This document shows positions 25,784 to 64,000 of a stretch of 64,000 nt of DNA, in pieces; positions within the stretch are counted from its first letter, which is position 1; every line of letters starts with the position of its first letter. The stretch comes from Argentina anserina (taxonomy: Eukaryota; Streptophyta; Magnoliopsida; Rosales; Rosaceae): the NCBI RefSeq assembly GCF_933775445.1, contig NC_065875.1, positions 14,397,001-14,461,000 on the forward strand. Direction: 5' to 3'. The notes under the pieces were generated by a model. The model ran no database searches, was not told where the DNA came from, and saw only the letters and a list, made by a program, of their open reading frames with translations. The position numbers were made by a program, and so were the translations under genes.

Positions 25784-27662
25784 TTTGCCTCTTCAATTCT
25801 GCATGCTCAGTTGGGTTCATCCGATAATGTGGTGAATTAGGTAATGTTGCTCCTGGAACCAGATCAATTGCATGTTGAATATCTCGAAGAGGAGAAAGTT
25901 CATTGGGAAGATCCTCAGGGAACACATCGCTGAACTGTTCTAGGACTGACTTAACACCCTGCGGCAGCGCCAAACTACTCAAAGGGTGAGATTCCTTTGC
26001 AAACAATACAAAAATTACAGAATCTCTTGTCGTCTCCTTCACGAAATCTCTGGCACTGATGATGTTAATGGATTTTGACTGCTCCCTGCTTGGTATCGGT
26101 TGAGACATAAGTCTGGGCTGAACTGGATTCAGTTTGATATGTTTTCCTTCATGAATAAAAGAGCATGTATTGGCACGGCCCGCCGTATTAACATCGAGAT
26201 CATACAACCATGGTCTGCCTAAAAGAATATGTCCCACATCCATTGGCACCACATCGCACCAAACAGTATCCTTGTAGGATGAAAATTGAATGGGTACCTG
26301 ACATCGCTGCTTTACCGGAATGGAAGACTTATCAATCCATGCTACACGGTAAGGTTGAGAATGATCAGCAGGGGTCAAACCCAATTTAGAAGCGGTCTGA
26401 GGAGAAACCACATTGATGCAGCTCCCATTATCAATGATGACCTTATAACTTCTGTCTCCCCTTTTAACATAAGTGTGAAAAATGGTCGTTCTCCGCCAAT
26501 CTTCAGCTTCCTTAGGTTGAGTCAAGGTGCATCTCACCACAGCCGTTTTCGGTTGAACATCTTCCTCTAGATCATCATCAGCTGGGATTTCAGGGTCATA
26601 AACTTCTTCCTCTAGGTGTACTTGAACATTAGCCTCTCCTTCTGTGCTAGCAGCAAATAGACTTCGTAATTGCTCTTTAGTTGGGCATTGACCAGCATAA
26701 TGGCCATAACCTTGACACTTATAGCACCGTGCGAGTCCTTCTCCCCGATTGCTAGATTGTACTCCCTTTCCCCTCTCAGTTTTCACCAGGGAATTGGCAG
26801 CATTAGAACCACTAGAATATGGAGATGATTTAGTGCCGGAAGCACTAGCACGAAATTCAAGATTCCGTTGGTCAAACCGCCTTTGTACAGGGGTTGTAGG
26901 ACTTTTTAAATAACGCTCCAATTCCAGCACAATTTGATAGGCTCGCTCCAACGAATATACCTCATGAGGAATCAACTCCCTTTGAAGTTCTGGACGAAGG
27001 CCGGTTCTGAAACGGGCAAGGGTTACAGATGGATCTTCAGTTATGTTACATCTCACCATAAATTCTTCGAACTTATCGATATACTCCACAACTGGCATGC
27101 CTCCTTGACGAAGGGATTGCCACTGGTCCAGCAAACGTTGTTGGTAAGCCAAGGGAACATACTTCTCCTTCAGCCTTTCTTTCATCTCATCCCATTCTGT
27201 AACAGGTTCTTCACCAGCCCTTGCAAGTCGCCTTTCCAAACCAGTCCACCATTCCCTCGCTTTGCCCACCAACTTCATCTTTGCAAAGCGCACCTTTCGA
27301 GCTTCTGACAATTCATACCAATCAAAATAATGGTCCATGTCTGAAATCCAATCCAAACATACCTTTGCATTTAGTTGGCCATCAAAGTTTGGAGCTTCAA
27401 CTTTAATAGACCTCAAAGCTTTCTCTTCAGGATCATATCCATCTTGCCCATTAATATTCCGGAGGGGCTGCTGCCTGCGAGCAATCCTTCTAGGCTGTGG
27501 TCTCCGTCCTCCGCCTACACTCTCTTCTTCATTGAGAATGGAGGCTTCAAGTTCTGCCAAACGCCGGTCAGAGGCTGCTGCATAGTCTTGCATTCTTGTG
27601 TCAATCTGTCCAAGTTGAGCGAGTACGGCTTCCAAGGTTTTAGCCACAGTTTCAGCATCCAT
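25677..27662 (-). CDS. chromovirus gag-protease and start of reverse transcriptase
   Basis: A 661-codon frame opens at ATG 27662. Its N-terminus is a predicted coiled coil (about residues 1-45), followed by the gag domain (core around [15 protein letters not shown] to [14 protein letters not shown]). A CCHC zinc knuckle [15 protein letters not shown] follows, and then a retropepsin-like domain with [12 protein letters not shown], where DNGS replaces the usual D(S/T)G, and [11 protein letters not shown]. It ends in the first part of reverse transcriptase (the [13 protein letters not shown] region), where a frameshift takes the rest into another frame. Gag and pol are fused here with no stop between them. 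Confidence 0.9.
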
Positions 27663-35104: not shown

Positions 35105-35887
35105 TCACTCAGAATCTTTGTGTGGCTGCTGTTGCTGAGGCCAAGCTTGCTGAGTCATGTATGGGTGTGTTGGTTGGCCATACATATTTTGATCCATCAC
35201 AGGCTTTCCCACCATCATTCCAGGAGCACCGACCGGCGGTGGAGGCGGAGCTGGCATGTAATAGTACGGAAGACCATCAGCCGGACCGACAACTGGAACA
35301 TTCCCACCTCTTGGGATCGATGCAAGAACCTCATCTTTCAAATCCTCTCTGGGGACAATATCAACTAGAAAATCAAATATATCAGTCCTTGTAATTGCTG
35401 CTGCAATGTCATTCTTTTGCAGTGTTCTCCTTTTGTTCTCCTCTGTGTGATTCCAAGACCGTAGTGTCAACTCCAGAATAAACATCTCACAAGCCCTGGC
35501 AAATATGACTGGTGCTTCAGCCGATATCATCCTTACATCCTCATCAGCCTTCATAATCTTCTTAATCCTGGCCAATGGTAAACTATGGTTCTTGAAATCA
35601 TTAGCCTGCTCTATTTCTTGATACTGACCTGACCAAAAGCTTTGGAGTTGTTGCTGTAGTTGCTGTTGTTGCTGCTGGTGGATGTGCTGATAAGCCTGGT
35701 GTTGTGCAAGCTGAGAAGGTGCAAAAGGACCACCCGGCTGCGTGGGAGATTGCATCATTCCACCCGATCCAGTTGGAGAGAGTCCCATCATCTGGCTAGG
35801 CTGATATGGGTTCACTCCATATGATGCTTGACCTGCACTTCCTGGGACTCGTACTGTTGCTGGATGTCCATGCCCCTGCTGATCCAT
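35105..35887 (-). CDS. nuclear transcription factor Y subunit C (NF-YC/HAP5)
   Basis: NF-YC pairs with NF-YB through histone folds; with NF-YA the trimer binds CCAAT boxes, and with CO/CCT proteins it acts in flowering and light or ABA responses. The coding region is one uninterrupted exon of 260 codons. A Gln/Pro/Met/Gly-rich N-terminus contains a poly-Gln run (about 71-82). The histone fold spans about residues 95-180 and holds LPLARIKKIMKADEDVRMIS, EMFILELTLRSW and the LQKNDIAAAI stretch, then DIFDFLVDIVPRED. A Pro/Gln-rich tail follows. The start ATG lies one base after a splice acceptor (TACCAG|G). That fits a 5'-UTR intron, common in plant NF-YC genes. The closest relatives by composition are NF-YC1/3/4/9-type proteins. 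Confidence 0.96.
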   Translation of the reverse strand: MDQQGHGHPATVRVPGSAGQASYGVNPYQPSQMMGLSPTGSGGMMQSPTQPGGPFAPSQLAQHQAYQHIHQQQQQQLQQQLQSFWSGQYQEIEQANDFKNHSLPLARIKKIMKADEDVRMISAEAPVIFARACEMFILELTLRSWNHTEENKRRTLQKNDIAAAITRTDIFDFLVDIVPREDLKDEVLASIPRGGNVPVVGPADGLPYYYMPAPPPPPVGAPGMMVGKPVMDQNMYGQPTHPYMTQQAWPQQQQPHKDSE

Positions 35888-37390
35888 CCTGGTATAAGGT
35901 TGGAAAGTAGAAGTTTTCATACACAGTATATTTTGACAATCAAAAATCAAGTTTCCAAGAGCCAAATAAAATTAAAGAGATTGCTGTATATCAAAATAGG
36001 ATTTGGTTCCCTGATAAATGCTTGTAATCTGACAACTATATAAGTCAATTGATCTAATACAAACCTGGTATTCAAAAGGAGATAGAGTCGCTTTTAAGTT
36101 CTACACTTTTTATATAGTAAGTCAGATATCTAGAATTATTGAAAACCAAAAGACCTCATTTGATAACATCATAACAAGCAATGTACGACTTCCCTTCGAA
36201 GATGACTAACTTCTCCCACCATAAAGTACACTAGACCATAACCAAACTTTGCCCCTACAAGGTCAGTCATAGCCATACAAGTAAATGTAGTACTCCTACT
36301 ACCACTGCATCTTGGTCCAATTTAGTAGTCAACCTACCAAAATCTAACTACCAATTTACCTTTTATTATCATCCAAATAGCTGATCACCATAGGAACTTC
36401 CAATTATCTTAAATGTTGCAAACCGAGACTTTATTTGGATTTGAGTATTCTGCCTTAACTAGAATTATTTTTGATTCAGAAACAAGTACATAGCTCATAA
36501 TTCAGGCAAGTCCCAACTAAAAGTGTACAAGAACAAATTACACATGGCAGACGATTACACACCCAATACTAATCAGAAGCTATGAAAACCAGACCACGGC
36601 TTTTATCTGAAACCCCCGTAGACCATACCAACCTACACTATCTTAGACATTGCACAACCGAGACCAGTTCAAATCGAGTAATCTGGCTTAACAAGAAAAG
36701 TGAACAACCATTATCTTCTGCAAACATACAAGTTATCTGCACCTTGTGAGTTATACAACACAAGCACGAAAAGCACTTAGCAGACCTTTTCACACAAGAT
36801 TACTCAACAATTCATACCCCGAACCTCGCTAAAACCTACCCACAAGTTCTCAATTTTCTTCCAATCCTTAAAAAAACATTCAAAAAGCAAAGTAACACCA
36901 ACCATAGAGAAAACACTCTTGTCTCTGATTTCCTTCATATAAACAAACTGCTTATACATGGCCACATACTATTACTACACCGACCAATCTATACACATGA
37001 GTTAGTTCACCACCCACTTAATCTAGCTCCAGGGTTTCTAAACCCCTAACAAACATAATCAAGAAAAATCTCCACACAGAAAGCATTAAAATTCAAAAGC
37101 AATAACCCTTACAAAACTAAAACTCAAGCAGAAAAGTAAAGAAAGCCGGTACCTTTGGTCTCTCTGCCTCTTCTCAGATTCTGCCTCAACCACCTGAAAA
37201 GCAGCAGCCTATAAAGAAGCAAATTCCAGTTAATCACAAGAGTATTTGAAGCTGGGCTTCAATGGAAAAGAGTAAAGCTGCAAAAACCAAGATATTTGAG
37301 AAAGCAGAGAAAAAAAGGACGAACCTTTACGAATTGGGTTTGTGAGAAATTGGGAAATGTGAGAGAAGAGTGGAGTTGGGTTGGGGGGAT
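35888..37390 (-). promoter_or_regulatory. NF-YC 5' UTR with a ~1.26-kb intron
   Basis: The acceptor at 35889-35890 (minus-strand CCAG) directly precedes the start codon. A fitting donor is AAAG|GTACC at 37153/37152, giving an intron of 1264 bases. The upstream leader exon would extend to about 37390, which is a pyrimidine-rich leader-like region on the minus strand. The intron itself carries no coding frame. Transcription start and exact donor are inferred. Confidence 0.55.
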
Positions 37391-47746: not shown

Positions 47747-50336
47747 ATCTGGACTCTGATGCCCTAATAACTGTGGATCATTCTTTTTCCCGTTCTTGAT
47801 AAACTGAGTCATAGCAGACGAACAACAAACCGTATATCAGTACTATTTCTTTAGCACTTTTATCGATTCATAATTAAGAAGACGAATGATAAAGAGAAAT
47901 TAATTAAGGGGACGTAAGCACGTTACCACAATATACATAGACGCAAGACGTAAAGCCAATAAGTTAACGATATTCCTAAACCTCCCGAAGTGATGAAGAA
48001 GAAGGGTGAATAATATTAGAACCCTAAACCCCAACTGTAATCCCAATTTCATAAGTAAGAACATGAACACCCAGATTTTTTTTTCTGACAAAAATTGGTC
48101 TCCCCATGACAAGGTAATCGATGAACAAAGGAATAATGAGCTTTTTTTGGGTCTGAAAAGGAATAATGAGCTAGAATGATGGTTATTCGTGCTGGTGGGA
48201 CTAATTAACCCTAGCAAGTGGCAATGCATATGTGGCCATGATATTCAGCGAATAAAGAACCAAGTTTTCTTGGATTTTGATGAAAAGTATTTCGCTGACA
48301 TACATAGCTAGGGTTTCGCTCAACCACTAGTCCACACCCTCGATTAAGACTCATGCTCAAATCTCATTTTCGTTTCTTTTCACTTTGAAATATCGTATCC
48401 AACTATCCAAACTCGTATCTTCCTAAGGCCTGTGCTCTCTCTGGCTTTCCTTTGTTTGCTTCTTGTATGTTTGTTTGCTCTTTCGGGGTAATACAAGTAT
48501 CTTTTCCAAAAAAAAAACGTATCTTCCTTTTTCCATTGACCATGGGATACCTTCCAAATTCATCGATCGCAAGGAGATTGTTGTGTGAAATATAATTCAT
48601 GCCTCAATAGCCGATTGGTCATCTGTACACACTGACACACAGAAAACACAATGTGAGAGCCACTGCTTATTCGGGACCAACAACTTGATTGAAATCTCAA
48701 TTTTGTACTAAAAATGTTTACAAAAAAAAAACAGTTATGGCTAGTATATATCTATTGTCCGCCATCTGGATTTTCTGATATAGTGTTCCTTAATTAGCTA
48801 GCTTTTTCTCATGTTCTCCCTGAAATTAGTCTAAAACAAAATGTGGGGAACTGTAGCCCTAGCAAAGTAATGAGCTAATGACAACATTAGGGTTCAGCCA
48901 AGACAAATGTGAAAGAATAGCCCTAGAAATGAGCTAGCCAATGATGAAATCCTAAGTGTAGGAGCGATCGAGAGTTATAACAGGTTTTAGTCTTAAAAGT
49001 GTTTGATCCCATAATGTTTATAAATTTCAGTTCTCATTTTGAGTAATAGGTCGGCTTGTTCTTTCTTTCTACCAATGAAGTTTATTTTTCTTTCGAACCT
49101 TAGCTAGATATTTTGTAGCTTCAATACGAATTATCCAAAGATCTTTTCGAGGAAGATTAATTGTTGGTATGACCAGGTCGATCTTGATCCATTTCCTAAT
49201 GAGAAATGAACTTTACTATCAAGATGAAACACCCCATCTGCTTCCAGATAAAATAAAAGAGTAAAACACAACACACACATCAAACATCAAAGTGGGAAAC
49301 CACTCCCCATCAAGACAATAAACCTCAACAATAATTAGTGGCACTTTTTAATAATTTATTTCTCATGAAAGCAAATGGGAGACAAAAATTAGGTGACTAA
49401 AGGTTACTCATCCAACTAGGAAGGACTAAACTGGAGTTTAATGTCATCATCCCAGGGTGTATGGAACACCAAAACGTTGTCGCAGGCTCTTCTCTTAATT
49501 ATACAATGCAGCTTAATTAGTTTAATTTGATGAGGAAATCTATGGTCACTAATTTAAATGACATACATAAGGGAACATGGTTTTGTTAAATTAAAAACAG
49601 ATGTAGGAGCACTGAGAGAAGAGTTTGGAGTAAGTTGTTTAAAGAGAGATTTTGATTGATGCGATGTTCATGGTTTTCTCCACGTCAGGTTTGCATTATT
49701 TAAGTTTGGCTGAAAGTGATCGCTGAAAGTGATCGAGTGTTCGGCTAGCTCTATCTCAGGCAACAGGCAATGACCATGTTTAGTTTAAAGCTAACATTTT
49801 ATAAAATTTGTGAATTCAATCTTAATTCTATGAATTTGTCAATAGCCAGAAAATATATATACCCCAGAAAGTGAGGAATCTCACTACGGCATGCTTCAAT
49901 AATTATGTGTACGTAACTAATATTATGGTGCGTAGGAACCAGATCGATGCTGCTACTCTCAATTATTTTCTTAGATAGAATATACATGAGCTATAATATT
50001 GGGGGTTGTACGGTTCATGTAGTTGTAATTGATGACGAGGGAAGAAGAATAGATCTCCAATCTTGCTCTCTCAAACTTAATTTACCAAAAACAACGGTAC
50101 CAAGTGAATAAGAAATTTGAGTGCATGCCGTGTTTAAAGAACTGATCGATGAACATTGAATATAGCCCATGATTCAGTGATTTAGAAGTACGAACTAGCT
50201 AGCTAGCATGCAATCCATAAATGCCGAAATTAAAAGGAACAACATTATACAACAAATCTGTTCAACTTCGATCATTTATATTTCCATTGCCTATAAAAGG
50301 GGATCAAAAGTTATTTTGCTGTTGGGAGAATAGAAC
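47747..50336. other. intergenic, no gene recognised
   Basis: AT-rich DNA with many GCTAGC/TAGCTAG-type words. No supported coding sequence, LTR or inverted repeat was found up to the target site of the nested retrotransposon complex. Confidence 0.45.
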
Positions 50337-50341
50337 ACTAC

Positions 50342-50518
50342 TGTTGCACAGTGACAAATGTGGCTTGTGGATCACCAATGTATTGATATTGTTTTAATAT
50401 AATCATCTTTAAGATATTTGGTTTTAATCTCAAAAGACTTCAGTATAATTAGATATTATTTATTCACTTATAAGTTGTATTTGTCACATTTCAGATGTGG
50501 GATCTCTCTTCTTCAACA
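50342..50518 (-). repeat. TRIM LTR0 (leftmost, 3' LTR in element orientation)
   Basis: 177 bp, similar to the LTRs at 61842-63532, sharing the TGGATCACCAATG stretch, TTTTAATCTCAAAAGA, CTTATAAGTTGTAT and the terminal CTTCTTCAACA. It is the most divergent copy. It is followed by TTCCCCCT, the left half of the polypurine tract that copia A interrupted. Confidence 0.85.
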
Positions 50519-50525
50519 TTCCCCC

Positions 50526-50971
50526 TAAAGGCGTTTGTCAATCCACATAGATTTCCTAATCTGCTCAAGAAAACCTTGTTTCAGTAAAGTTGACTTTTAC
50601 ACATATTTGATTTTCAATTCTTAAGTCGTCTGCTGTTTAAAAAAAATCTATTTTGTTAAATCCATATCTGACCCGGTCTATGTTTATATCATACCATATA
50701 TTATGTTGTCAATTATCTTTGATTGGTTTGATCCATGTTTTGTGGCATGAAAGCAGATCTGAGTCTCTTTGGCTTAATCTCTATATATACAACACTAGCA
50801 TGGACTAGTAAATGTGAGCTTTTAGATTATATGCTTGAGATATACATGTGTGATAGTGCATGTGTTATGCGATGTCAACTGTGTTCATTCATAGAAATAT
50901 GATATTTCTCCCATTGCAATCTTAGATTGAGTGTTACCTGCATAATTATCTCATTGAGATTAATTTGTCTA

Positions 50972-51007
<36 letters not shown>

Positions 51008-51284
51008 CCTACAACAAGAAGATGCTGACTCATGAATGAGTTTTAGAATATAGTTTTTGTGATTCAAGTTAGCCGAGTTGGCTAGTAAAGAGATCTCAAA
51101 AGAGTCTCTACTTGTAGAAGTTATATTGTAAACATCATTCGTAGTAAATGGTTGTGTGGACTACGTTAAAGTCCCGTAGTGGTTTTTACCAATTGTTTTG
51201 GTTTCCACTATAGTGAAGAAACTCCTATCTTTGTGTGATTGAATTTGTGTGATTTCATATTACTCTTACTCTCTAATACTTTTA
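50526..51284 (+). repeat. 5' LTR of copia A
   Basis: 759 bp, including a (GT)n run at about 50977-51002. It contains about 155 bases near 50780-50930 and about 60 bases near 51007-51070 that the 3' LTR lacks. Confidence 0.85.
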
Positions 51285-51286
51285 TT

Positions 51287-51298
51287 TGGTACCAGAGC
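51287..51298 (+). promoter_or_regulatory. primer binding site of copia A
   Basis: TGGTACCAGAGC sits two bases after the 5' LTR and differs at one position from the standard tRNA-Met complement TGGTATCAGAGC. Confidence 0.75.
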
Positions 51299-51331
51299 AG
51301 GTCACTAAACGCAACTAATGAGATTAGGGAA

Positions 51332-51744
51332 ATGGAGAGAATTTCAATCAATACTCCTCCTTCGTTCGATGGGACTGGTTACGAGGATTGGAAATTAATG
51401 ATGCAGACATTCATCAATGCTTAGGATAGCAAGTCTTGGCGATGCATCTTGGTAGGGTGGAGGCTTTAGTTAGAGGAAGTTGGTGCCAAGGCTAAAACTC
51501 TGGCAGACACGTCCATTGATGGTGTTACTAAATCAAAAGAGGAGCAAATCCTCAAAGACGTCACCAAATGGACTCCAGAAGAAATTGCATACAGTGAGGC
51601 GGAAAATAAAGCAAGGAATGCTCTGTATCATGCATTGACCAAAGATGAACGTCAGCAAATCAAGTACTGCATAAACTCAAAAGAAGTGTGGGATACTCTT
51701 CAACTAAATTATGAAGGTAATAAAAAGGTGAAAAAACATAAACT
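51332..51744 (+). pseudogene. copia A gag, 5' part
   Basis: The ATG at 51332 opens MERISINTPPSFDGTGYEDW, the usual start of copia gag (the F.G..Y..W motif). A stop follows within about 30 codons. Gag-like sequence continues in other frames (KWTPEEIAYSEAENKARN, ALTKDERQQIKYC) until copia B cuts it at 51744. Confidence 0.8.
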
Positions 51745-51928
51745 TGTTCCGGAATAATTACTATTCTACCTTTGTGTGTGTCTTAGCCTAATAGGTTTCA
51801 TGTTAGGAGATAGATTAGCATCTTTGTAATAGATTAGGACTCCGAATCCTACGGGATTGTGATTTTGTAATGCCTATATATAGGCCCCCATATCATTCAA
51901 TAATACACAATTATTTCATCCTACATCA
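51745..51928 (+). repeat. 5' LTR of copia B
   Basis: 184 bp containing a TATATATAGG promoter-like box near 51876-51885. It is followed by CGTTATCACGCAC, a candidate primer site of a non-standard type. Confidence 0.88.
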
Positions 51929-51989
51929 CGTTATCACGCACTTTGTCCTAAAACCATGAACTTTTAGAGCCTTAGAATTTTTTTTCTCT

Positions 51990-52260
51990 CTTCTCCTCCA
52001 CCGTCCGCTGTCGTCTTCGGCCTCCGGCATCTCCTCGCCGGCGCACCTCCTGTTTGCCGCCGCTGCAACCCCCCTCCCCGCTGCTACCCCCGTAGCCCTG
52101 CAAGCCCTACACGCGACCCCTGCAGCCCCCGCATCGAAGCCCCCGCACTCAGCCCTCCCCGCAGCCCCTGCAACTACCCCCGCAGTCCCGCACGCAGCCC
52201 TCCCCGCAGCCCCTACAGCCAGCCCCTGCACGCAGCCCCGCAGGGTCTCCTCCGCATTCG
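51990..52260 (+). repeat. GC-rich Pro/Ala-type low-complexity tract
   Basis: Degenerate short units such as CCCCGCAGCCCCTGCA recur here. The base composition is far more GC-rich than anything else in the window. It occupies the leader or gag start of copia B. Either strand reads as low-complexity protein (Pro/Ala or Gly/Ala), and I do not call a gene. Confidence 0.6.
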
Positions 52261-52299
52261 CTCCGCTAAAACATCTTTTTGCCCCGTAAGTCCCCGCAT

Positions 52300-55200
52300 C
52301 AACGCATCCAAAATTACTCCTCCCGCATATTCACGCAAGAAACGCGAACTTCACAAGCAAGGTCTTCGCCCAAGAGAAACTACTCCCGTCTACTACAAAC
52401 CTTCAAAGGTAAATTTTTCATAAACGTTTCCGCTTTTGAACATATATATATAAATTATCAGCCGCTATTAGCCTTTTTCATGTCTTCTTTCCTGCATTTC
52501 TTATAACGCCGATGAGACCACAGCAGGATATGATTCCCCTCTTGGTCGACGTTTTTCGTGTGACGGTTCTGGGGGAGTCACGTTATTATTTAAAGGGAAG
52601 AAATCAATTTCGTGTGGTTGTCTGAGTACACCGCTGTTTTGGGAGCGATCATGAGAATTGCCGATATGTATTGATTATTTTGTGACCATATACATCACAA
52701 CCATTCTAATTCCGGTTACATACTTGAATAATTTTGATTATTCGAAACCAATACAACCCTCGTTTCTCATGGATGTGTCGCCATCGCGACTGTTATTTGA
52801 ATGTTTGAGTTTTCTTAAACTCTTGTCTATAAATGATAATCACAAGGTCTACATACTCATTTATTTGAGTTGATTCATTACTCTGATGCAGCACTATTTG
52901 CTGACAAAAGATCTCAAAAATAACGCATTTTATGGGACACACTTAAAAGTGATTCAATAAACGTCTATGGCGTTCTATTACCAGAGTTGACCTTGAACCA
53001 TACTCCACATCCGAGAAACACATGCCAGTTTTGGCACCTGTATCTATTTCTTGAGGGAATTTTAGAGATAGAAACGTAACATGCTTCCATTCTCAAGTAA
53101 GCACATTTTTTAGCTTCAGGCTACGGCTCCGCCCGATCTGATATGCAAGATTTTGTTGCTACGGACTTTTGATTAGTAAATCTATTTTGACTATGTTTTC
53201 TGCTTATTATTTTTCAAGTATGACGTTGGCATTGCCATGTTTCTTGCTCGACTTTAGCTTAAGTCATCTATTGGAATTGGAAGGTTGGTTGTGTTGTATT
53301 AAATATTGGCATATTCAATAAAATTTCTCGTATTCCTTGTTTACAAGATGATCTCGTGAGAATTTAATTTGCCTTGACTTAACATGAATGATCAACATTT
53401 GCAACTCACGTGGTTTTTAAATTGGCCGCTTTTGGGTTACATGGGACCCCAATAGTACTACATTGTCATTTAGACCTTGAAATTTGGAAAAAACGGACCT
53501 GGGAACGTCAAAATTGACATCGTTTTTCCCGGTTACTGTTCCGGCGTTTTCGCCGCCTTCCGGCCACTTGCCGGCGTTTCCGGCGCCACCATCTAGTTCC
53601 TGCCGAGATCCCCTATCGGACAGCAGCCCCGGCCTCCTTGCCGGCCAGCTCCGACTGCCGCCTGTCGGTTTTCCGGCAATCGGCGCTGCCGGTTCCGGCG
53701 AGTTTTTGACGCTTTTTTCGTCGTTTCTCGTCATTTTTCTGACATATTTCCCGCAGTTTTTACTGCCACGTTTTCCAGTCCAAATTTCACTCGGTTTTGA
53801 GTTTTTTTGGCATGGTTTTCCGGTTAATTTTTCGGTTTTCTCCAAGTCGTTTCATAGCTCAAACGATTTTATTATTATTGGTGACCACCCGCACCAAATG
53901 GATGGTTTACCACCCAAATTTTTTGGTAATCAACTGCTCCAATACTATATTTTTCCAACTCTTAAGTTGAAGAATGTAGTTCTATTGCCATGTGATACGC
54001 TCGATGTGATTGCAAATTTGTTTCAATCCCTCCTCTTACAATATCCTACGGTGTATTGTCTAGAGAAGTTCATTGCGTTGTTGACTCTCTTAATTTTATT
54101 TTGAGCATGTCCCGCCGTGAAATCGAGTGTCTTGCTAATTGCGTAACCACCCACACTGTTCTACGGCGCATGTAGTTGTTTTACGTATCTCGTGCGGAGA
54201 TTGTGTTTTATATCTCCGTGCCTTGCTAAGTTTTCAAAGGCCATATGTGTCAATGATACATTTTCATCTTGATATTTGTGTTAATAATGGAGAGGAATAA
54301 ATCTGTCAGCTTTCATTGATAGTAGCTTTTTCAAGCTTAGATATAGCTTTGCTTGCCTGCAGCAGTAGCTTTATGTAACTCAAGATTCTTTAAATCATGG
54401 GCATTTTTCAAGTCCCGGAAGCGATTGGAGGATCACCTCACCCGTGCTCCACACGGTGAGGCTGTGCCTACCCGTGCATCGCACGGTGTGGCCGAGCATG
54501 CCTCTCTCGGCAGCTCCACGGCTTTCATGCCATCGGTGGCAGCATCCTCTCTTTCACAAGAGCTTATGATGCCTCCCGTGCTTTCTAATGCCTCCATGGC
54601 AATTTCTGATGCCCATCGCTCGTTTTGTAAAGCTTGTTCTCTTGCTAAATTTCAAAGAAGTCATTCTTTTGCTAAGGCTTCGACTGAGAACATTCCATTC
54701 TTACAAAGTATTTAAGGTGACATTAGTGGACCCTATCCAACCGAATGTGGAAATTTTTCGGTATTTTTATGGTATAGGTTAAGAGCATCGACGCGTTGGT
54801 CACTCGTCGGTTTGCTTTCCACATTGAACGCTGCATTTGCTAAAGTTTTTAGCTATGATCATCATCCTAAGGGCTCACCACCCTTCCTATCTTCTCAAAT
54901 CTATTTGATTGGATACCGTTGGAGAGTTCACCTCCACGACTTTGATGATTTCATTTTGCATATCTACTGGGATCGTCGTTGAACATATTATTCCTCATGT
55001 TCATTCATTGCACGATCTAGCAGAGCTCGGACTTGGTTATGGGTACTAACCTGCCGAGTTTTGCATGGGGATATGTAATGATGTTGCATGCAGCGACACT
55101 TATTCGTTTTAGACCTACAACTTGCCAAGCGTTTAGTGCGTACCAGATGGTTACTGGATACAATTTTCACTAAACGCCTATTTGGTTAAAATTGTTTATG

Positions 55201-57560
55201 TGCCTTTATTGTAGTTATCTCAATGAGTTTACTTGAAACGATTAAGTATTTTGGTTGGTTATGAATCACCAACACTTGTCTGCTATTTCCAATCTACAAC
55301 TGTGAATCTCTATCCTGCGATTTTAGCAGACGATCACTTTGATTAGACATACTTCCCGTCGTTAGGGGGAGAAATGGAATGCTCCCATTCTGGTTTTAAC
55401 GCTAGGAATTGACGTGGTGTGGCACTATGTCTCATTAAGATCCCGCACTACTCAAAGTGAGCAAAAGTGCAACACATTTTCAACCTCCAGAAAGTCAAAG
55501 ATTCGATGCTTAATGACTTTACTGATATTGTGAAAGTGACGAGATCGCACATAAATGCTGTGATGTGCCGGTAAGGTTGAAACTCTCATAATATGGGAGA
55601 ATTTCATATGACCTGGTCCTAGCACCGTTGGCACCATCCCTGACAGTGGGAAGGAAGCCGACGATGACGCCATCGTACGCTGTGGTGTTGTCGGCGCCGG
55701 TTGTATTGCATCACAAAACAAGGGCGGCAAACACAAAGATGGACTAGTAAGGGTCATAGCTTCGATCTTGGCTCCTACCTAGATGAGGGGGAGACCATTA
55801 TTCTATGGAATCAAAACCAGAAAGAAACGAAGTGCGTAGGCACAAGTATTTCGCCCATCATCAAGAGATATTCTCTAAACATGTGTATCAACTAAGTTTC
55901 TGTGGGACGCTACAAACTCATTTTGTTGATGTTAGAGAAGAATAGAAATCTCACAAATTGATCGTATACAGCGCGCGCGTGTGTTTAATGGATTGATCTC
56001 CCATGATTGATGATGTATTCGCTTATGCTCTTATCCCGTTGTAAAGCATAAACAATGAGCAACTTGACCGAAGTGGAAAGAATCAATACAGGCTGAACTA
56101 GAATTGTTATGTTGGTCGTTGTTCGTAAGTGTAATGAGAAAGATGAAGTCATGCGATATATGCAGGACTTATGGCGCAAAGATTGTCTCATTATCCTAGT
56201 ATTGACTACGATGAGTTATATTCTCTTGTTATTGACATAATTGCTTTCCGCTACTTGATCAGTAGTAGTGTCCTTGAAAACTGATTTGCACCATATGATA
56301 GTGGTCATAGGATATCTGTAAAGGGATCTTGACGCAGATATGAGAGTGCCCGAGGGACTTTAAATGCCTCCAGACTACGGAGAGCTTATATAATCAGATT
56401 GCGACGTTTGAGAGAATGTAGTACAATCGATTGCAAGAACTCATACCCATATCTGTTCATATGAAAGCTAATTCTTGATTCTCGATTCCGTCTAAGTAAA
56501 GATTCATATATATAAGGGTTGTTGGGACACTATTGCTTTCATTATGATGTGATTAACTATGCGCCTATGCATCGTCATTGGACTTGCATTGCTCCCTTGA
56601 CATGGGTTTAGTTCTACACTTAGTGAACCAACACAAATCTTATCCACACTAACACCGCCAGCAGCTCCAGCAACATCAATGTACGCCTTGGTGTAGCAAT
56701 CGACACTGGTAGCGTAAATGATACGTACGGTTCCGTCTCGGACCAAAATCAGTCCTTCATTGGTTTATTCCCCCATTTATTTGTGAAAGACACATTGAAT
56801 GTGACAAATCAGAATATGTCCAGTTTCGTAGGTCAACTTCAATGAGACCTACAAGACATCTCGCTCGATGAAATATGGTGAAAGTGGTACCATTGGAAAG
56901 GCATATGTGTCTAATTTCCAAGGACACCAACCATTTGTTCATAGCTATCATATTGAGTGAGTTATGACCATTTTAGCAAAGTAGGACAGTTCTGTCTGGA
57001 AATTTGCAAGTCAGTCAACTTCGACAGAGCACTGTGAACTGCTCCGATCGGATTAGGTTGTGAACTTTATGTCATTAGAAAGCCGTGTCTACTTTCCAGA
57101 ACATTTTACGGTTCGGTGATACCTATTTTGACGAAGAAGTTATGGCCGTTTAAGTGAGTGAAGATCATTCTATCCGAGAATCTGATTTTCATTGCAAACT
57201 CTTGTTTTGAGTTGTTATGCAATCTTGTTTCCTAAGATCTAAGTTTGGCTAAGTATAACATGTATGATCTAAGGATGTGTGGCTAGATTAATGATTAATC
57301 ATGGGCCCAAGACTACATTTGAGAAGCATATAATGAATGTTGTATACGTTGTTCTTTGTACTCCATGATTATGACACTAATCAGGGGGAGTTGTTTCGTA
57401 GACTTCAAGGGGAGTCTACCTCACATGATGCTATTAAATGTAGGCGGTGCTTTATGCTCTTTTTCCCTTCCATCAAGCTTTTGTTTTTACCCAAGAGGTT
57501 TTTATTTTGCTTGACAAGGTTTTTACCGAGGCAACGATGTGTGCACCATGCAACCTAGGC
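52300..57560 (+). pseudogene. decayed gag-pol of copia B
   Basis: Scattered blocks fit a copia polyprotein. Near 53890-54110 there is gag-like sequence. Near 54350-54715 there is a pre-integrase to integrase stretch ending FCKACSLAKFQRSHSFAKAS. Near 54715-55180 come integrase core fragments with GPYPTECG and ASTRW. Near 56330-56400 comes a reverse-transcriptase-like PEGL context. Frames change repeatedly and stops are frequent. No continuous catalytic domain remains, so this copy is dead. Confidence 0.65.
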
Positions 57561-57578
57561 ATGCGACACAAGGGGGAG

Positions 57579-57761
57579 TGTTCCGGGAGAATTACTATTC
57601 TATCCTTGTGTGTGTCTTAGCCTAATAGGTTTTTAGTTAGGAAATAGATTAGCATCTCCGTAATAGATTAGGACTCCGAATCTACGAGATTGTGGTTTTG
57701 TAATGCCTATATATAGGCCCCCATATCATTGAATAATACACAATTATTTCATCCTGCATCA
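57579..57761 (+). repeat. 3' LTR of copia B
   Basis: 183 bp, near-identical in layout to 51745-51928 with scattered substitutions, directly after the polypurine tract at 57570-57578. Confidence 0.88.
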
Positions 57762-58559
57762 AAAATGCAATTATTACTAAAATAGTTTGAAATTTTTTAG
57801 ATGAAGGACGATGAAACCATTAATCAATACCGTAAAAGGGTGATTACCATTACTGGAGCCATTCCTTCACTTAGTGTTCGAAAAACTATTCCTGAAGATG
57901 AAATAATGCTCAAAGTTCTAAGATCACTTCCACCAAGGTTTGAGACAAAAGCTATCACAATTTCTGATGCCTATGATCTTGATCAGTACACACTGGTTGA
58001 GTTAATTGGAAACTTAAGAATCTATGAAGCTGACTTAATGGAAAGGATCAGAAGAAGGTAAAATCTGTTGCTTTCAAAGTTACAAAAAAGGTAGAGCCTT
58101 CAAAAACTCAAGATCTAACTACTGCTGAGTTTGCTTTAATGACTAAAGAATTCAAAATTTTCTTAAATAGAAAAAAGAATTCTAAGAATAAAAACAAACG
58201 GTTTGATAATAAGCTTGAGAAGACTAATGGTGCTTCTTCCTCCCAAAAGAAAAATCATGCTAAAACTCAGTGTTTTGAAATATGGAGGAATATGGCATGT
58301 TGCTATTAATTGTGGTAACATGAAGCAAAAGGAAGAAGAGAAGAAAGCCCTAAAATCATCATGGAGTGATGATGATGAGGAAGAACAAAATGTAGCCTTC
58401 CTTGGTTCAGTCAAGAACAGTGATAGCTCAAGTGATGAATCATCTGAAGATGAAGACGAAGAAGTGATAAATAGCTCCATGATCCCTTTAAACCTAATCA
58501 TGTTTACAGATGAAGAAGACTCTTTATGGTTTGAAACAAGCACCAAGATCATGGTATGA
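57762..58559 (+). pseudogene. copia A gag, 3' part with a damaged zinc knuckle
   Basis: After copia B, gag resumes with MKDDETINQYRKRVITITGA and the LKVLRSLPPRFETKAITI stretch (UBN2-type). A later frame gives CFKYGGIWHVAINC, a zinc knuckle in which one expected Cys is Tyr. An Asp/Glu/Ser-rich acidic stretch follows. Several frame changes separate the blocks. Confidence 0.8.
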
Positions 58560-58609
58560 ATGTTTGTGCACTTATCTCCTCAATTGCGGTTATGTCTGAG
58601 GTAACATCG

Positions 58610-59478
58610 ATAAAACCTTATTTGTTAAACGAGTTGAGTCACAACAAATAATCGCTCAAGTGTATGTAGATGACATAGTGTTTGGAGGCACTTCACATAA
58701 GCTGGTGAAAGAGTTTCAAAACATTATGGCTAAGGAGTTTGAAATGTCAATGTGTGGTGAACTGACATACTTCCTTGGTTTGTAAGTTTCCCAAACTGAT
58801 GAACGAATGTTTCTATCACAATCTGAATATGCTACCTCTCTTGTTAAAAAAATTGGTCTTGATTCTAAGAAACATGTTGTAAAACCTTTGAGCACTACTA
58901 CCAAACTACATGAGGATAAAGATGGTCAGAGTGTAGAGCAGACTCTATACAAAAGCATGACCAGTAGTCTACTCTATCTCACTGCTAGTATACTCAATAT
59001 CTCTTACAAAGTTGGTGTGTGTGCTAGATTTCAGGAAAACCCTAAGGAATCACATTTGGATGCAATCAAAAGGATCATTCGCTATGTTTCAGGGACAACA
59101 ACATGTGGCATACATTATACCTCTGAGACTAACATCGAAATTGCAGGGTTCTCGGATGCTGACTCGGGAGGCAATCTTCAAGATGGAAAAAGCACATCTG
59201 GAGGCTGTTTTTACATTGGCAACAATTTGGTTTCTTGGCACAGTAAGCAATACAACTACATTTCCTTATCCATAGCAGAAGCTGAATATGTAGCTGCTAG
59301 AAGCTGTTGCACACAACTATTATGGATGCAACATATGCTACACGATTATGGGTTTGAACAAAAAATTCTTACTCTTTTCTGTGATAACACTAGTGCCATA
59401 AGCATTGCTAAAAAACCTGTACAACACTCACGCACTAAACATATTGATCTTCGTTATCATTTTATCCGTGATTTGTAG
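58610..59478 (+). pseudogene. copia A reverse transcriptase (C-terminal part) and RNase H
   Basis: The frame enters abruptly in the middle of reverse transcriptase at about KTLFVKR. It contains the catalytic YVDDIVFGGT and, after a TAA at about 58782, a 223-codon open frame (58807-59478). That frame carries the connection and copia RNase H motifs: ADSGGNLQDGKSTSGGCFYI, VSWHSKQ, AEAEYVAARSCCTQLLWM, DNTSAISIAKKPVQHSRTKH and DLRYHFIRD. Protease, integrase and the first half of reverse transcriptase are missing between this and gag, so an internal deletion removed roughly 2.5-3 kb. Confidence 0.88.
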
Positions 59479-60106
59479 AGAAAAATATGCTAGAACTCAG
59501 CTTTGTTCCCTCTGAGCGGCAACTTACAGATATCTTCACTAAGTCTCTGGACATTGACAGGTTCGTGAGCCTGAGAAATGCCTTAGGGTTTTGTTCAACA
59601 TCATAAAGAACGAAAAGGGGGAAGGAAACTAGTAAGTGTTTTCATCCAAGTAAATAAGGAAAATGTTGTGTGATTTGTGATTAGCTTTGCAGATTTTTGA
59701 GTCCCTTTCTTTCTTCTTTCTTCTCTCTTGCGTACTAGGTGGTTTGGTCTATATCTCAAAAGGCTAAGTTCTCATTATGGCATATACGATACGAATCTGT
59801 TAGATTGATCGTCCAATTCGTTTACGTGTGATTGTAGGATTTTCAAGTTTCTAGGGATTTGCATGGTGTCCAAATGTCCTAGTTATTACTAGGATTCCCA
59901 AAGTTGTGTTCCCTTGTTCATTTTGTGTTAGGTGTTAGGGTTTCGTTGTGCTATTATTTAAACCTCTATCACTGATTCATTCTTCTTCCATCTTTCTCTT
60001 TGTTCTCGATTGCTTTTCATTGTGTGCTTAGTGTGCAGAACATGGTGAGAACAAAGAAACCACTCACATGAGAGGTAGTCACAGGCTTCATGGAGCATAT
60101 TCTAGT

Positions 60107-60588
60107 CTTCTGACTCTTCTCCATTCCATGCCGCAACACCATTTCCAGTTTCCTCCTCCACCACCACATCCGGCGCCATTACCTCCTTTTCGGAGCCAGT
60201 TCTTCCTACTAATGTTTCTTCTGACCCTATTGTTACTGCACTTCAGCGTGCACAACAGTCTCAAGTCACTCAGACGGACCGCATCATCGGCATGCTCGAC
60301 CGGATGGAGACGATGCATTCTCGTGATACGGAGAAGGTGGAGCGCACGTTGCACATCATGATGGAAGTCATCTTTGCTCAAGGAGATCATGGTTGTGTTT
60401 CTCCCTCACCAAGTCCTCCTCACTCTTCTGATTCAATGGACTCTCAAGGTTCAACCCCTGATGAGGACCCTGTTGCACCTGGCCCAAGCTCTGGCCATCG
60501 TCACCACTTCTCTCAGTTGGAAAAGAATATGAGAAATATGAGGGAGGCTACACTCTGGGAGGAAGCACGGAAGGAGACTGATTTGTAG
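60107..60588 (+). CDS. extra downstream open frame of copia A, function unknown
   Basis: About 160 codons stay open after pol and before the 3' LTR. The N-terminal part is rich in Ser, Thr and Pro. A likely coiled-coil segment follows (TDRIIGMLDRMETMHSRDTE to HIMMEVIF), then a Ser/Pro/Asp-rich stretch and a charged end. No ATG opens this frame at its left border. A separate ATG at 60042 (MVRTKKPLT) ends after nine codons, so the true start may be lost. Position matches the additional frame of SIRE/Maximus-like copia elements, sometimes called envelope-like; here no membrane or envelope feature is visible. Confidence 0.4.
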
Positions 60589-61015
60589 GCGGCACGCAAG
60601 GTGGCCAAGAACAAGTCCACCAACTCTTCTTGCAAGAAGTAAACCCCCATTTGTCTTTCCATGGGAGAGTAGTAGTTTTATTTCGTCAAGCTTCTAGTGT
60701 TTTTAATCCTGGGTTGTAATAATGCAAACTTGCACATAGCTATCTTTGATTTATTATGTTGAACTTAGCTGGTTTTGCTTCTTATTTACTAAACAATATT
60801 TCAGTTTTTATTTGCTTTTTGTGTTAATCTTAAGAGTTGGAACATGATGGAAATTGATTCCTTCCTAAAGCTCTTAAGACATCTTCTTGTTATTCTAGTT
60901 CTATGACTAGTGGTATCAATGAAGGTATAACCGAAGCCATAGTTTCTTGAAAATCAAACTTATACTATTTTTACAGGACATTGACGAAACAAGTGTGGAA
61001 TGACAAAGGGGAGAT

Positions 61016-61312
61016 TCAAGGTGTTTGTCAATCCACATAGATTTCCTATTCTGCTCAGGAAAACCTTGTTTCGGTAAAGTTGACTTTTACACATATTTGA
61101 TTTCCAATTCTTAAGTCGTCTGCTATTTTAAAAAAGCTATTTTGTTAAATCCATATATGACCCAGTCTATGTTTATATCATACCATATATTGTGCTGTCA
61201 ATTATCTTTGATTGGTTCGATCCGTATTTTGTGGCATGGAAGGAGATCTGATTTTGTTTGGCTTATTGAGTGTTACCTGCATAATCATCTCATTGAGATT
61301 AATTTGTCTATG

Positions 61313-61372
<60 letters not shown>

Positions 61373-61592
61373 CCAGTTAGTCGAGTTGGCTAGTAAAGAG
61401 ATCTCAGAAGAGTCTCTACTTGTAGAAGTTATATTGTAAACATCATTCACAGTAAAAGGGTTGTGTGGACTACATTAAAGCCCCGCAGTGGTTTTTACCA
61501 ATTGTTTTGGTTTCCACTGTAGTAAACAAACTCTTATATTTGTGTGATTGAATTTGTGTGATTGCATATTACTCTTCTCTCCAATACTTTTA
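61016..61592 (+). repeat. 3' LTR of copia A
   Basis: 577 bp, homologous to 50526-51284 but lacking two internal blocks and carrying a longer (GT)n run (about 61316-61367). It ends CAATACTTTTA directly before CCCCCTCGCATGCAACC of TRIM interior 1. Confidence 0.85.
61316..61367. repeat. (GT)n microsatellite, about 52 bp
   Basis: A GT dinucleotide run inside the copia A 3' LTR. The corresponding run in the 5' LTR is about half as long (50977-51002), showing slippage after insertion. Confidence 0.92.
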
Positions 61593-61841
61593 CCCCCTCG
61601 CATGCAACCTAATTTTTAGGGTTGCACGTGTAATTCATTCGGTCCAATTTCCACATTGGAAATCGGTATATGTGATTTGGTGATTTGCTCTAATTCCTAT
61701 TTCAGAAATTGGCACTACAGTCCATGACCTATTGCGAACACTTGGTATGAAATTCGATGAACCCAAATTTGGGCCCAGTATGCTTGGGAAATCCCCATAC
61801 GGTCAGGAGAAGTAATTGGAGAGAGACCCGCTCTGATACCA

Positions 61842-62013
61842 TGTTCAACATGGAAAAGCATGGTCAGTTGATCACCAATTACCGATATTGTCCAAACTTA
61901 ACCACCTTTAAGGTATTATGTTTTAATCTCAAAAGATCTCGGTACAATTAAGTATTATCTATCTATTTACAAGTTGTATATTATTTCAGATGTGGGATTT
62001 CTCTTCTTCAACA
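61842..62013 (-). repeat. TRIM LTR1
   Basis: 172 bp, bounded by the primer site (GCTCTGATACCA on the plus strand) at its left and by CTCCCCCTCAC at its right. Carries a few small deletions relative to LTR2-LTR5. Confidence 0.85.
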
Positions 62014-62263
62014 CTCCCCCTCACGTGCAACCTAATTTTTATGTTTGCACGTGTAATTCATTCGGTTCAATTTCCACATCAGAAATCGGTATATGTGATT
62101 TGGTGATTTGCTCTAATTCCTATTTCGGAAATTGGGACTACAGTCCAAGACCTACTGCGGACACTTGGTATGAAATTCGATGAACCCAAATTTGGGCACA
62201 GTATGCTTGGGGAAGCCACATACGGTTAGGAGAAGTAATTGAGAGGAACCCGCTCGGATACCA

Positions 62264-62444
62264 TGTCGAATAGGGACAAGCATGGTCTGTGGATCACCAA
62301 TTACCGATATTGTCCCAACTTAACTACCTTTAAGGTGTTAGGTTTTAATCTCAAAAGAGCTCGGTACAATTAGGTATTATCCATCCACTTATAAGTTGTA
62401 TATTATTTGTTACATTTCAGATGTAAGATCTATGTTCTTCAACA
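62264..62444 (-). repeat. TRIM LTR2
   Basis: 181 bp, with the same borders as LTR1. Interior 2 (62014-62263) lies between LTR1 and LTR2. Confidence 0.85.
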
Positions 62445-62695
62445 CTCCCTCTCACGTGCAACCTAATTGTTATGTTTGCATGTGTAATTCATTCGGTACA
62501 ATTTCCACAACGGAAATCGGTATATGTGATTTGGTGATTTGCTCTAATTCCTATTTCGGAAATTGACACTACAGTTCAAGTCCTGATGTTGACACTTGGT
62601 ATGAAATTCGACGAACCCAAATTTGGGCTCAGTATGCTTGGGGAATCCCCATACGGTTAGGAGAAGTAATTGGAGAGGGACCCGCTCTGATACCA

Positions 62696-62876
62696 TGTTG
62701 AACAGGAAAAAGCTTGGTCCGTAGATCACCAATGACCGTTATTGTCCCAACTTAACCACGTTTAAGGTGTTAGGTTTTAATCTCATAAGACCTCGGTACA
62801 ATTAGGTATAATCTATCGACTTATAAGTTGTATATTATTTGTCACATTTCAGATATAGAATCTCTCTTCTTCAACA
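62696..62876 (-). repeat. TRIM LTR3
   Basis: 181 bp. Interior 3 (62445-62695) lies between LTR2 and LTR3. Confidence 0.85.
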
Positions 62877-63124
62877 CCCACTCACATGCAACCTAATTTT
62901 TATGTATGAATGTGTAATTCATTCGGTCCAATTTCCACATCGGAAATCGATATATGTGATTTGGTGATTTGCTCTAATTCCTATTTCAGAAATTGGGACT
63001 ACAGTACAAGACCTACTGCGGACACTTGGTATGAAATTCGATGAACCCAAATTTGGGCCCAGTATGCTTGGGGAAGCCACATACGGTTAGGAGAAGTAAT
63101 TGAGAGGAACCCGCTCAGATACCA

Positions 63125-63184
63125 TGTCGAATAGGGACAAGCATGGTCCGTGGATCACCAATTACCGATATTGTCCCAACTTAA
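63125..63184 (-). repeat. TRIM LTR4, truncated
   Basis: Only about 60 bases remain. At 63184/63185 the sequence jumps from the LTR (CCCAACTTA) to the middle of an interior (ATTTGGTGGTTTGCTCC), which implies a deletion of roughly 200 bases. Interior 4 is 62877-63124; the partial interior 5 is 63185-63350. Confidence 0.8.
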
Positions 63185-63350
63185 TTTGGTGGTTTGCTCC
63201 AATTCCCATTTCAGAATTTGGCACTACAGTCCAAAGCTTAATGCGGACACTTGGTATGAAATTCGATGAACCCAAATTTGGGTCCAGTATGCTTGGGGAA
63301 TCCCCATACGGTTAGGAGAAGTAATTGGAGAGAGATCCGCTATGATACTA

Positions 63351-63532
63351 TGTTGAATAGGGACAAGCATGGCCCGTGGATCACCAATGTACCAATATTG
63401 TCTCAACTTAACCACCTTTAAGGTGTTATGTTTTAATCTCAAAAGACTTCGATACAATTAGATATTATCCATCTATTTATAAGTTGTATATTATTTGTCA
63501 CATTTCAGATGTGTGATCTCTCATCTTCAACA
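63351..63532 (-). repeat. TRIM LTR5 (rightmost, 5' LTR in element orientation)
   Basis: 182 bp, complete. It is flanked on its outer side by TCTAC, which pairs with ACTAC on the far left of the complex. Confidence 0.85.
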
Positions 63533-63537
63533 TCTAC

Positions 63538-64000
63538 GTATCCCACATTGAAGCTGTGGTAAGAATTAATGGAAGTTTAATTTGTTCAAAGCTAGAGAGA
63601 GAATTGGTAAATAAAAGTCTGAATTAAGAGCAAATGATGAAGGAAGCATAAGTTAAGGGTTTTCAATTGTTTCCCTTATTGGCTTATTTACAAACAAATT
63701 GGACTTGAAAGAGAGTTGGTACGTAACCATCAACACCAAATTATTGTAGGATAGTGGTAGTTGTGATTCTGAACTTAATTCAGTTGCAGCTGATGTCTAT
63801 TCTGACATAATATCACAGAAGTACATGACATCAACTTCAAGTTCAGTTACATGCATGCATCAGATTTTCGTGCACTAACTACCAGCTAGCTTGCTCCATT
63901 GGCTTGTTGATCATCCAAGTAGACAGGTATTAGTAGAAGGTGTGAGGCTGGGATTGCAGGGTGGGATTTTCAAAACTTGAAAAAGGAGAGCCCCTGAAGC
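63538..64000. other. intergenic, no gene recognised
   Basis: Sequence beyond the TRIM complex, with no supported coding frame. Too short to judge whether a gene begins here. Confidence 0.45.

What the first reader, a model, noticed from the sequence alone, without database searches (positions are those of the whole stretch)
50342..63532. A tandem TRIM-like array with five interiors, itself the landing pad for two nested copia elements
Seen: six LTR copies (one truncated) of about 172-182 bp alternate with about 250-bp non-coding interiors. Each interior has a tRNA-Met primer site on one side and a G-rich polypurine tract on the other, and the outermost flanks (ACTAC/TCTAC) almost match. Known: TRIMs are short LTR elements without coding capacity, and tandem LTR-interior chains arise by unequal recombination between LTRs or from concatemeric cDNA. 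Inferred: one TRIM insertion grew into an array and was later split by copia A and B. The relative ages of six LTRs and four copia LTRs can be read from one locus.
Basis: partly seen in the sequence, partly recalled or inferred. Interest (0 to 1): 0.75.

Follow-up and report, generated by a model that had tools for sequence, protein, structure and literature searches.

The report
Tandem TRIM array split by retrotransposon
A miniature, gene-less jumping element in a plant chromosome has turned into a row of six end-repeats and five middles, which is a known kind of structure; relatives elsewhere in the same genome are fused to a larger jumping element, which hints at how such rows can start.

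Summary
Window 50342-63532 carries six LTRs (one truncated) alternating with five non-coding interiors of a TRIM on the minus strand, with a tRNA-iMet primer site, polypurine tracts and 4/5-matching flanks ACTAC/TCTAC. Copia A (50526-61592, TSD CCCCC) splits interior 1. Element B (51745-57761) is nested in A, but no coding domain supports calling it copia. Tandem TRIMs are known: 129 subfamilies in 35 of 43 plant genomes. Of 23 family-A loci read, only this one is an array. Its inner LTRs differ less (K80 0.114-0.147) than the LTR pairs of 15 single copies (0.149-0.395), and a recent exchange tract links I2/W3 with I4/W5, so growth or homogenisation after insertion fits best. A sister subfamily suggests that other arrays form before integration: in eleven loci a TRIM unit is joined to a foreign element, mostly exactly at the shared primer-binding site. 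Nine partners have copia-like LTRs; the three whose interiors were read in full are one copia family. Six of seven tested loci have a TSD. One 0.5-kb element has two different LTRs inside a perfect TSD. Those chimeras, not the window array, are the surprising part.

The parts
50337..50341 (.). left target-site duplication ACTAC
   Evidence: matches 63533-63537 TCTAC in 4 of 5
50342..50518 (-). LTR W1 (3' LTR in element sense)
50519..50525 (-). start of interior I1 (PPT side), cut off by copia A
   Evidence: the flanks joined without copia A read TTCCCCCTCGCATGCAACC, colinear with I2 CTCCCCCTCACGTGCAACC
50526..61592 (+). copia A, LTRs 50526-51284 and 61016-61592, ends TA..TA (5' LTR) and TC..TA (3' LTR), TSD CCCCC/CCCCC, iMet-type PBS near 51287; decayed
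   Evidence: copia gag PF14223 pieces; tblastx to copia pol; K80 0.109
51745..57761 (+). LTR element B nested in copia A, LTRs 51745-51928 and 57579-57761, flanks AAACT/AAAAT (4/5); no coding domain found
   Evidence: K80 0.082
61593..61841 (-). rest of interior I1, PBS at right end
61842..62013 (-). LTR W2
62014..62263 (-). interior I2
62264..62444 (-). LTR W3
62445..62695 (-). interior I3
62696..62876 (-). LTR W4
62877..63124 (-). interior I4 (right half plus W5 is a recent exchange tract with I2/W3)
   Evidence: 12 of 15 mismatch/gap columns in the first 136 of 310 columns, 3 in the last 174
63125..63184 (-). LTR W5, truncated; about 200 bp missing between it and what is left of I5
63185..63350 (-). 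interior I5, left part deleted
63351..63532 (-). LTR W6 (5' LTR in element sense)
63533..63537 (.). right target-site duplication TCTAC

Best explanation
One TRIM of family A (LTR about 180 bp, interior about 250 bp, no genes) inserted once on the minus strand, copied by proteins of some other element. After insertion, exchange between its LTRs and units (unequal crossing-over and gene conversion) built, or at least re-homogenised, the row of units W2-W6, leaving W1 as an outlier. A deletion fused W5 to I5. Copia A inserted into interior 1 and moved W1 11 kb away; B then inserted into copia A. Shown: anatomy, near-matching flanks, nesting order, the exchange tract. Inferred: that exchange rather than a ready-made concatemer gave the unit number, and that a helper element supplied the proteins.
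For: Outer flanks match 4/5 (chance 0.016). Inner LTRs W2, W3, W4, W6 differ by K80 0.114-0.147 (all 6 pairs), below all 15 two-LTR family-A copies measured (0.149-0.395); interiors differ by 0.05-0.135. W6 carries eight derived sites not in W1, six of them shared with at least one inner LTR; of 18 W1-derived sites three are shared (Fisher p 0.008). I2/W3 and I4/W5 share a recent tract while I3/I5 (0.135) and W4/W6 (0.147) do not, which fits conversion rather than a dimer duplication.
Against: A single unequal exchange between W1 and W6 predicts inner LTRs that are W6-like on the left and W1-like on the right; W1's derived sites are mostly unshared on both halves. Except for the tract the units are nearly star-like, as a concatemer would be. 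W1 has a long branch (0.15), so W1-W6 may overstate the age, and some of the asymmetry may be rate. The tree puts W1 outside the W2-W6 group, but one search found a tree 2.67 log units better with all five together. In the sister subfamily, chimeric and mixed arrays look pre-integrational.
Confidence: 0.55

Rival explanations
1. The array entered as a ready-made concatemer. Co-packaged TRIM cDNAs were joined during reverse transcription by strand transfer at the primer-binding site or LTR, integrated once, and only later exchanged sequence.
For: Single near-TSD. Near-star unit distances. In subfamily B, foreign elements and TRIM units are joined at the PBS within one TSD; clean three-LTR arrays have TSDs in 5 of 6; two further arrays, L050 and L059, mix the two interior types. 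In the three young B arrays interiors are as diverged as outer LTRs: L049+L051+L053, 10/622 vs 8/540, summed.
Against: Inner units here are younger than insertions of single copies. In the three older B arrays interiors are less diverged than outer LTRs (L052+L054+L055, 29/673 vs 42/530, summed); over all six 39/1295 vs 50/1070, while between loci the two rates are about equal. None of the six clean arrays mixes interior types. A template-origin test on shared variants was uninformative because LTR homoplasy is high.
Confidence: 0.36
2. Two or more independent TRIM insertions side by side; W1 belongs to another element than W2-W6.
For: W1's nearest LTR is in another locus (L009, 0.174) rather than W6 (0.207); W1 falls outside the W2-W6 group.
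Against: Units share LTRs exactly without host sequence between them, I1 is colinear with I2 across the copia A insertion, flanks match 4/5, and a tree with all five LTRs together is 2.67 log units better than the one.
Confidence: 0.06
3. For the chimeric loci of subfamily B: a one-LTR TRIM circle recombined into an already resident copia at the 12-base primer-binding site, instead of a fusion before integration.
For: Would give the same type I junctions and leave the resident's TSD intact.
Against: L103 has LTR_B-INT_B-LTR_X, no copia interior and a perfect TSD GATCG, which circle integration does not make. L094/L106 has the reverse arrangement.
Confidence: 0.2

Closest known systems
Tandemly arrayed TRIMs (TA-TRIM), Gao et al. 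2016, PMC4717578
   Same: alternating LTRs and non-coding interiors, one 5-bp TSD, reported from 35 of 43 plant genomes
   Different: here L6I5 with one truncated LTR, split by a copia; the maize figure legend shows arrays up to L5I4
Wukong TRIM of maize, PMC4528315
   Same: arrays with 3 to 7 LTRs, nested insertions; unequal crossing over proposed
   Different: another TRIM family in another plant (sequences not compared); no chimeras in the passages I saw
Cassandra tandem arrays, PMC7215508, and 'complex' pear elements, PMC4668562
   Same: TRIM arrays, TSDs in 4 of 5 Pbr118 complexes, the same debate about mechanism
   Different: Cassandra has a 5S RNA domain in the LTR; none here
Template-switch complexes, Sabot and Schulman 2007, PMC1950507
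   Same: three-LTR complexes with one TSD explained by a jump between two RNAs in one particle
   Different: their four complexes (two Angela, Squiq, Opie) join members of one family, though they ascribe VejuL and BARE2 to jumps between different RNAs; the B chimeras here join different LTRs at the shared primer-binding site
OsajRetroS10 / OsajLTRA10, PMC4717578
   Same: TRIM linked to a copia carrying a duplicated stretch that ends in the PBS
   Different: there TRIM and copia share LTRs; here the copia LTRs do not resemble the TRIM's (by eye)

Membership tests
TRIM | short LTRs (about 100-250 bp) with TG..CA ends | tested here: met
   172-182 bp, TG..CA in five of six copies; W5 is truncated
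TRIM | primer-binding site and polypurine tract at interior ends | tested here: met
   GCTCTGATACCA / CCCCCT and variants, (I5 has lost its PPT end); iMet gene ends
TRIM | no coding capacity, interior of a few hundred bp | tested here: met
   I2-I4 248-251 bp, I1 7+249, I5 166; no ORF of 150 aa or more there
TRIM | dispersed copies with 5-bp TSD | tested here: met
   22 further family-A loci fetched; >=4/5 TSD in 11 of 16 two-LTR copies
TA-TRIM (tandem array) | three or more LTRs alternating with interiors inside one TSD | tested here: met
   L6I5, TSD 4/5
Cassandra | 5S rRNA domain in the LTR | tested here: not met
   Rfam scan of 49500-64000 at E<=1: no 5S
Retrozyme | hammerhead ribozyme in the LTR | tested here: not met
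   Rfam scan of 49500-64000 at E<=1: none
Template-switch complex (Sabot and Schulman) | TSD around the whole complex | tested here: met
   4/5 here
Template-switch complex (Sabot and Schulman) | outermost LTRs highly alike | tested here: not met
   W1-W6 0.207, inner pairs 0.114-0.147; W1 long branch
Ty1-copia (element A) | copia gag/pol domains | tested here: met
   PF14223 in two pieces, one above and one below the gathering score, (the 58786-59475 piece had no Pfam match); tblastx to copia pol
Ty1-copia (element B) | copia gag/pol domains | tested here: not met
   three of its seven open pieces of 90 aa or more scanned, no Pfam match; decayed, so absence is weak

The most novel reading that the evidence does not exclude
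In this genome TRIM RNAs are reverse-transcribed in the same particles as one copia family, and cDNAs are spliced to one another by strand transfer at the shared primer-binding site. Unlike pairs give TRIM-copia chimeras and elements with two different LTRs; like pairs give the tandem TRIM arrays, including the ancestor of the one in the window. The chimeras then name the helper of a TRIM directly, without any shared LTR sequence.
Probability: 0.42. Interest if true: 0.66.

Novelty: new member of a known kind. Interest (0 to 1): 0.42.

Why it matters
Whether tandem LTR elements arise before or after integration is called unresolved in 2025 (PMC11899658, discussion section read). The window array mainly shows exchange after insertion. 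The sister subfamily shows fusions that look pre-integrational, with a larger copia as partner. For 278 of 289 TRIM subfamilies no retrotransposase-encoding relative was found (PMC4717578, section 18 read); junctions with foreign elements at the primer-binding site offer an LTR-independent way to identify helpers.

Tried and rejected
Cassandra and retrozyme membership: rejected. Dimer duplication [I2-W3-I3-W4] to [I4-W5-I5-W6]: rejected, I3/I5 and W4/W6 are not close. Simple W1 x W6 crossover mosaic: not seen. Position-specific clustering of middle LTRs in B arrays: no signal, star-like. Shared-variant test for two templates: uninformative, LTR homoplasy background 0.64. Two of eight candidate foreign junctions (L101, L104) turned out to be small LTR changes and were dropped from the chimera count. 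One hit (C6:12431977, L043) is an ordinary B copy with one base change; three of its seven hits were not examined. It raised the concatemer rival from 0.33 to 0.36 and the novel case from 0.40 to 0.42 and lowered the best explanation from 0.57 to 0.55; the two-insertion rival went from 0.07 to 0.06 because the better tree had not been weighed. Species name: not established; a host gene search (best 120 listed) gave a 95% unnamed match and named plants at 67-82%. Failed scripts: (boundary fit wrong, results not used) and the last part (repeated). Paper searches for TRIM-foreign fusions at the primer-binding site (listings, plus passages of PMC4668562 and PMC5668417) showed no such report.
Full report
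Observation. Read on the minus strand each unit is LTR, primer-binding site TGGTATCAGAGC, interior, purine tract, LTR. The primer site fits five initiator tRNA-Met genes of the same genome (recalled query; eight matches in all, five exact). W5 keeps 60 bp and is fused to the right part of I5. Interior I1 begins with seven bases at 50519, is interrupted by copia A, and resumes at 61593; joined, it reads like I2. The outer 5-bp flanks match in four of five places.

Neighbours. Copia A has LTRs of 759 and 577 bp, a perfect CCCCC duplication and two gag pieces of the copia type; its pol piece is 31-51% identical at protein level, in same-strand matches, to the copia discussed below. Element B has 184/183-bp LTRs, TG..CA ends and a 4/5 duplication; three of its seven open pieces of 90 aa or more were scanned and gave no Pfam match. 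K80 between LTR pairs: copia A 0.109, B 0.082, in line with the nesting.

Family A in the genome. Five searches (each scores only the 40 best candidates, so counts are lower bounds) and two fetches gave 22 loci besides the window. L031, fetched with them, proved to be subfamily B and is not counted. At least one further hit (C3:26185662) was not fetched. None of the 22 shows three or more LTRs alternating with interiors; L029 (C7:20863000-20870500) holds copies in both orientations and a further LTR. Fifteen copies with both LTRs alignable have LTR distances of 0.149-0.395, mean 0.22. The family is old and star-like.

History of the array. Inner LTRs (0.114-0.147) and interiors (0.05-0.135) are less diverged than that. 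W1 stands apart (0.207-0.263 from the four other full LTRs). W6-derived sites are shared with inner LTRs (6 of 8), W1-derived ones mostly not (3 of 18). I2/W3 and I4/W5 are nearly identical over 174 aligned columns (3 mismatches) and ordinary before that (12 in 136). I read this as exchange among units after insertion. It does not exclude a concatemer at the start, because exchange would erase the difference. One clade for all array LTRs or all interiors is neither shown nor rejected (p-AU 0.56 and 0.46); for the LTRs the tree with all five together was the better one by 2.67 log units, which the search had missed.

Sister subfamily B. Its LTR is 75-83% identical to family A's in most copies and the first 35 bases of the interior are shared. 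It is larger: 309 interior-LTR and 290 LTR-interior junctions at up to three mismatches. Six loci are clean three-LTR arrays, five of them with a duplication of at least 4/5; L049 has none. They were found with a query that favours arrays, so they give no frequency. All six have two interiors of one type (207/207, 208/208 or 233/233). Two less clean arrays mix the types: L050 (233, 207, 234) and L059 (207 type, truncated, then 232). Among the exact primer-site junctions listed (about 100 rows) I counted by eye six pairs at array spacing. In a sample of 20 exact polypurine-side junctions (the first 20 in contig order that I had not yet fetched, of about 94 listed, so already known arrays are excluded) none had a third B LTR and two (L086, L094) ran into a foreign LTR.

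Chimeras. In eleven loci B sequence is joined to another LTR element. Type I, foreign interior, B-LTR, B-interior, foreign LTR: L060, L062, L063, L065, L105, exact at GCTCTGATACCA on both sides (L060 with one base change in each site); L064 has the left join only, L086 is exact on the right only. Type II, B-LTR, B-interior, foreign unit, B-LTR: L094 with L106. Type III, B-LTR, B-interior, foreign LTR and nothing else: L103 and L102. L061 has two B units in a row and then a foreign LTR, with part of the primer site lost at the join. Duplications: CAGTA, TTCAC, AGAAG, TTTTC and GATCG perfect in L060, L062, L063, L065 and L103; 4/5 in L094/L106; none in L102; L061, L064, L086 and L105 not tested. 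These flanks were read by eye from the printed sequence. An estimate free of the search bias: of 89 exact B-interior ends (81 followed by T; 8 not), six run into a foreign LTR, a lower bound because a foreign LTR that begins with T, as in L060, is not seen.

Partner. In L060 and L064 it is another TRIM (L064 by eye). In L062, L063 and L065 it is one copia family, interiors 86-91% identical in DNA over most of their length, with gag, gag-pre-integrase, integrase-side SH3 and reverse transcriptase domains in L065. L094 and L061 run from the foreign LTR into a start like L062's copia interior (by eye). L086, L102, L103 and L105 have similar LTR starts, but their coding parts were not read. I did not measure how common this copia is among other iMet-primed elements, so its role as helper is inferred.

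Meaning. L103 is the sharpest case: an element of about 0.5 kb with a copia-like LTR at one end and a TRIM LTR at the other inside a perfect duplication. A plus-strand strong-stop DNA of the copia transferred to TRIM minus-strand cDNA at the shared primer-binding site would give exactly this (inference from the standard reverse-transcription scheme). The same transfer between two TRIM cDNAs could start an array. For like-with-like arrays the signs are divided: interiors in the three older clean arrays are less diverged than outer LTRs and none of the six mixes types, which argues for exchange within one element or sibling transcripts; the young ones show no such deficit, and L050 and L059 are mixed.

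Literature. Seen: abstract and discussion of PMC11899658; sections 8 and 18 and passages of PMC4717578; passages of PMC4528315, PMC7215508, PMC4668562, PMC5668417; abstract and part 1 of 2 of the main section of PMC1950507. Tandem TRIMs and template-switch complexes are in print. The listings showed no report of TRIM units fused to an unrelated copia at the primer-binding site; the library lacks most subscription journals.

Noticed in passing
L103 (C6:913300-914000, reverse): An element of about 0.5 kb with a TRIM LTR at one end and a copia-like LTR at the other, primer-binding site between, TSD GATCG on both sides.
   Followed up: yes
L062, L063, L065, L105; L094 with L106; L060, L064; L086; L102; L061: Chimeras of B-TRIM sequence with a copia-like element (or with another TRIM), joined at the shared primer-binding site on at least one side (L061: site partly lost).
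   Followed up: partly
L050 (C7:23237900-23240900), L059 (C2:4253200-4256000): B arrays that mix the 207- and 233-bp interior types.
   Followed up: partly
C2:21967072, C2:23541553, C7:16663445; L093: B-LTRs preceded by a primer site in an unusual upstream context; may be further chimeras.
   Followed up: no
L022 upstream of 723; L029 upstream of 5844: Family-A LTRs preceded by GATACCA but not by the family-A interior; possible chimeras or deletion remnants.
   Followed up: partly
window 50526-61592: Copia A has TA..TA ends in its 5' LTR instead of TG..CA, with a perfect CCCCC duplication.
   Followed up: partly
window 51929-57578: Interior of element B shows no recognised coding domain in the pieces scanned; it may be a large non-autonomous element.
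   Followed up: partly
L032 (C4:23634900-23637900): Two B-TRIMs in opposite orientation about 250 bp apart, each with its own perfect TSD.
   Followed up: no
window 22985-27662 (-): Long open frames that look by eye like a gypsy-type gag-pol; not scanned.
   Followed up: no
window 35105-35965 (-): Nuclear transcription factor Y subunit C-like gene.
   Followed up: partly
window 11029-12252 (-): Two open frames with leucine-rich-repeat-like sequence, by eye.
   Followed up: no
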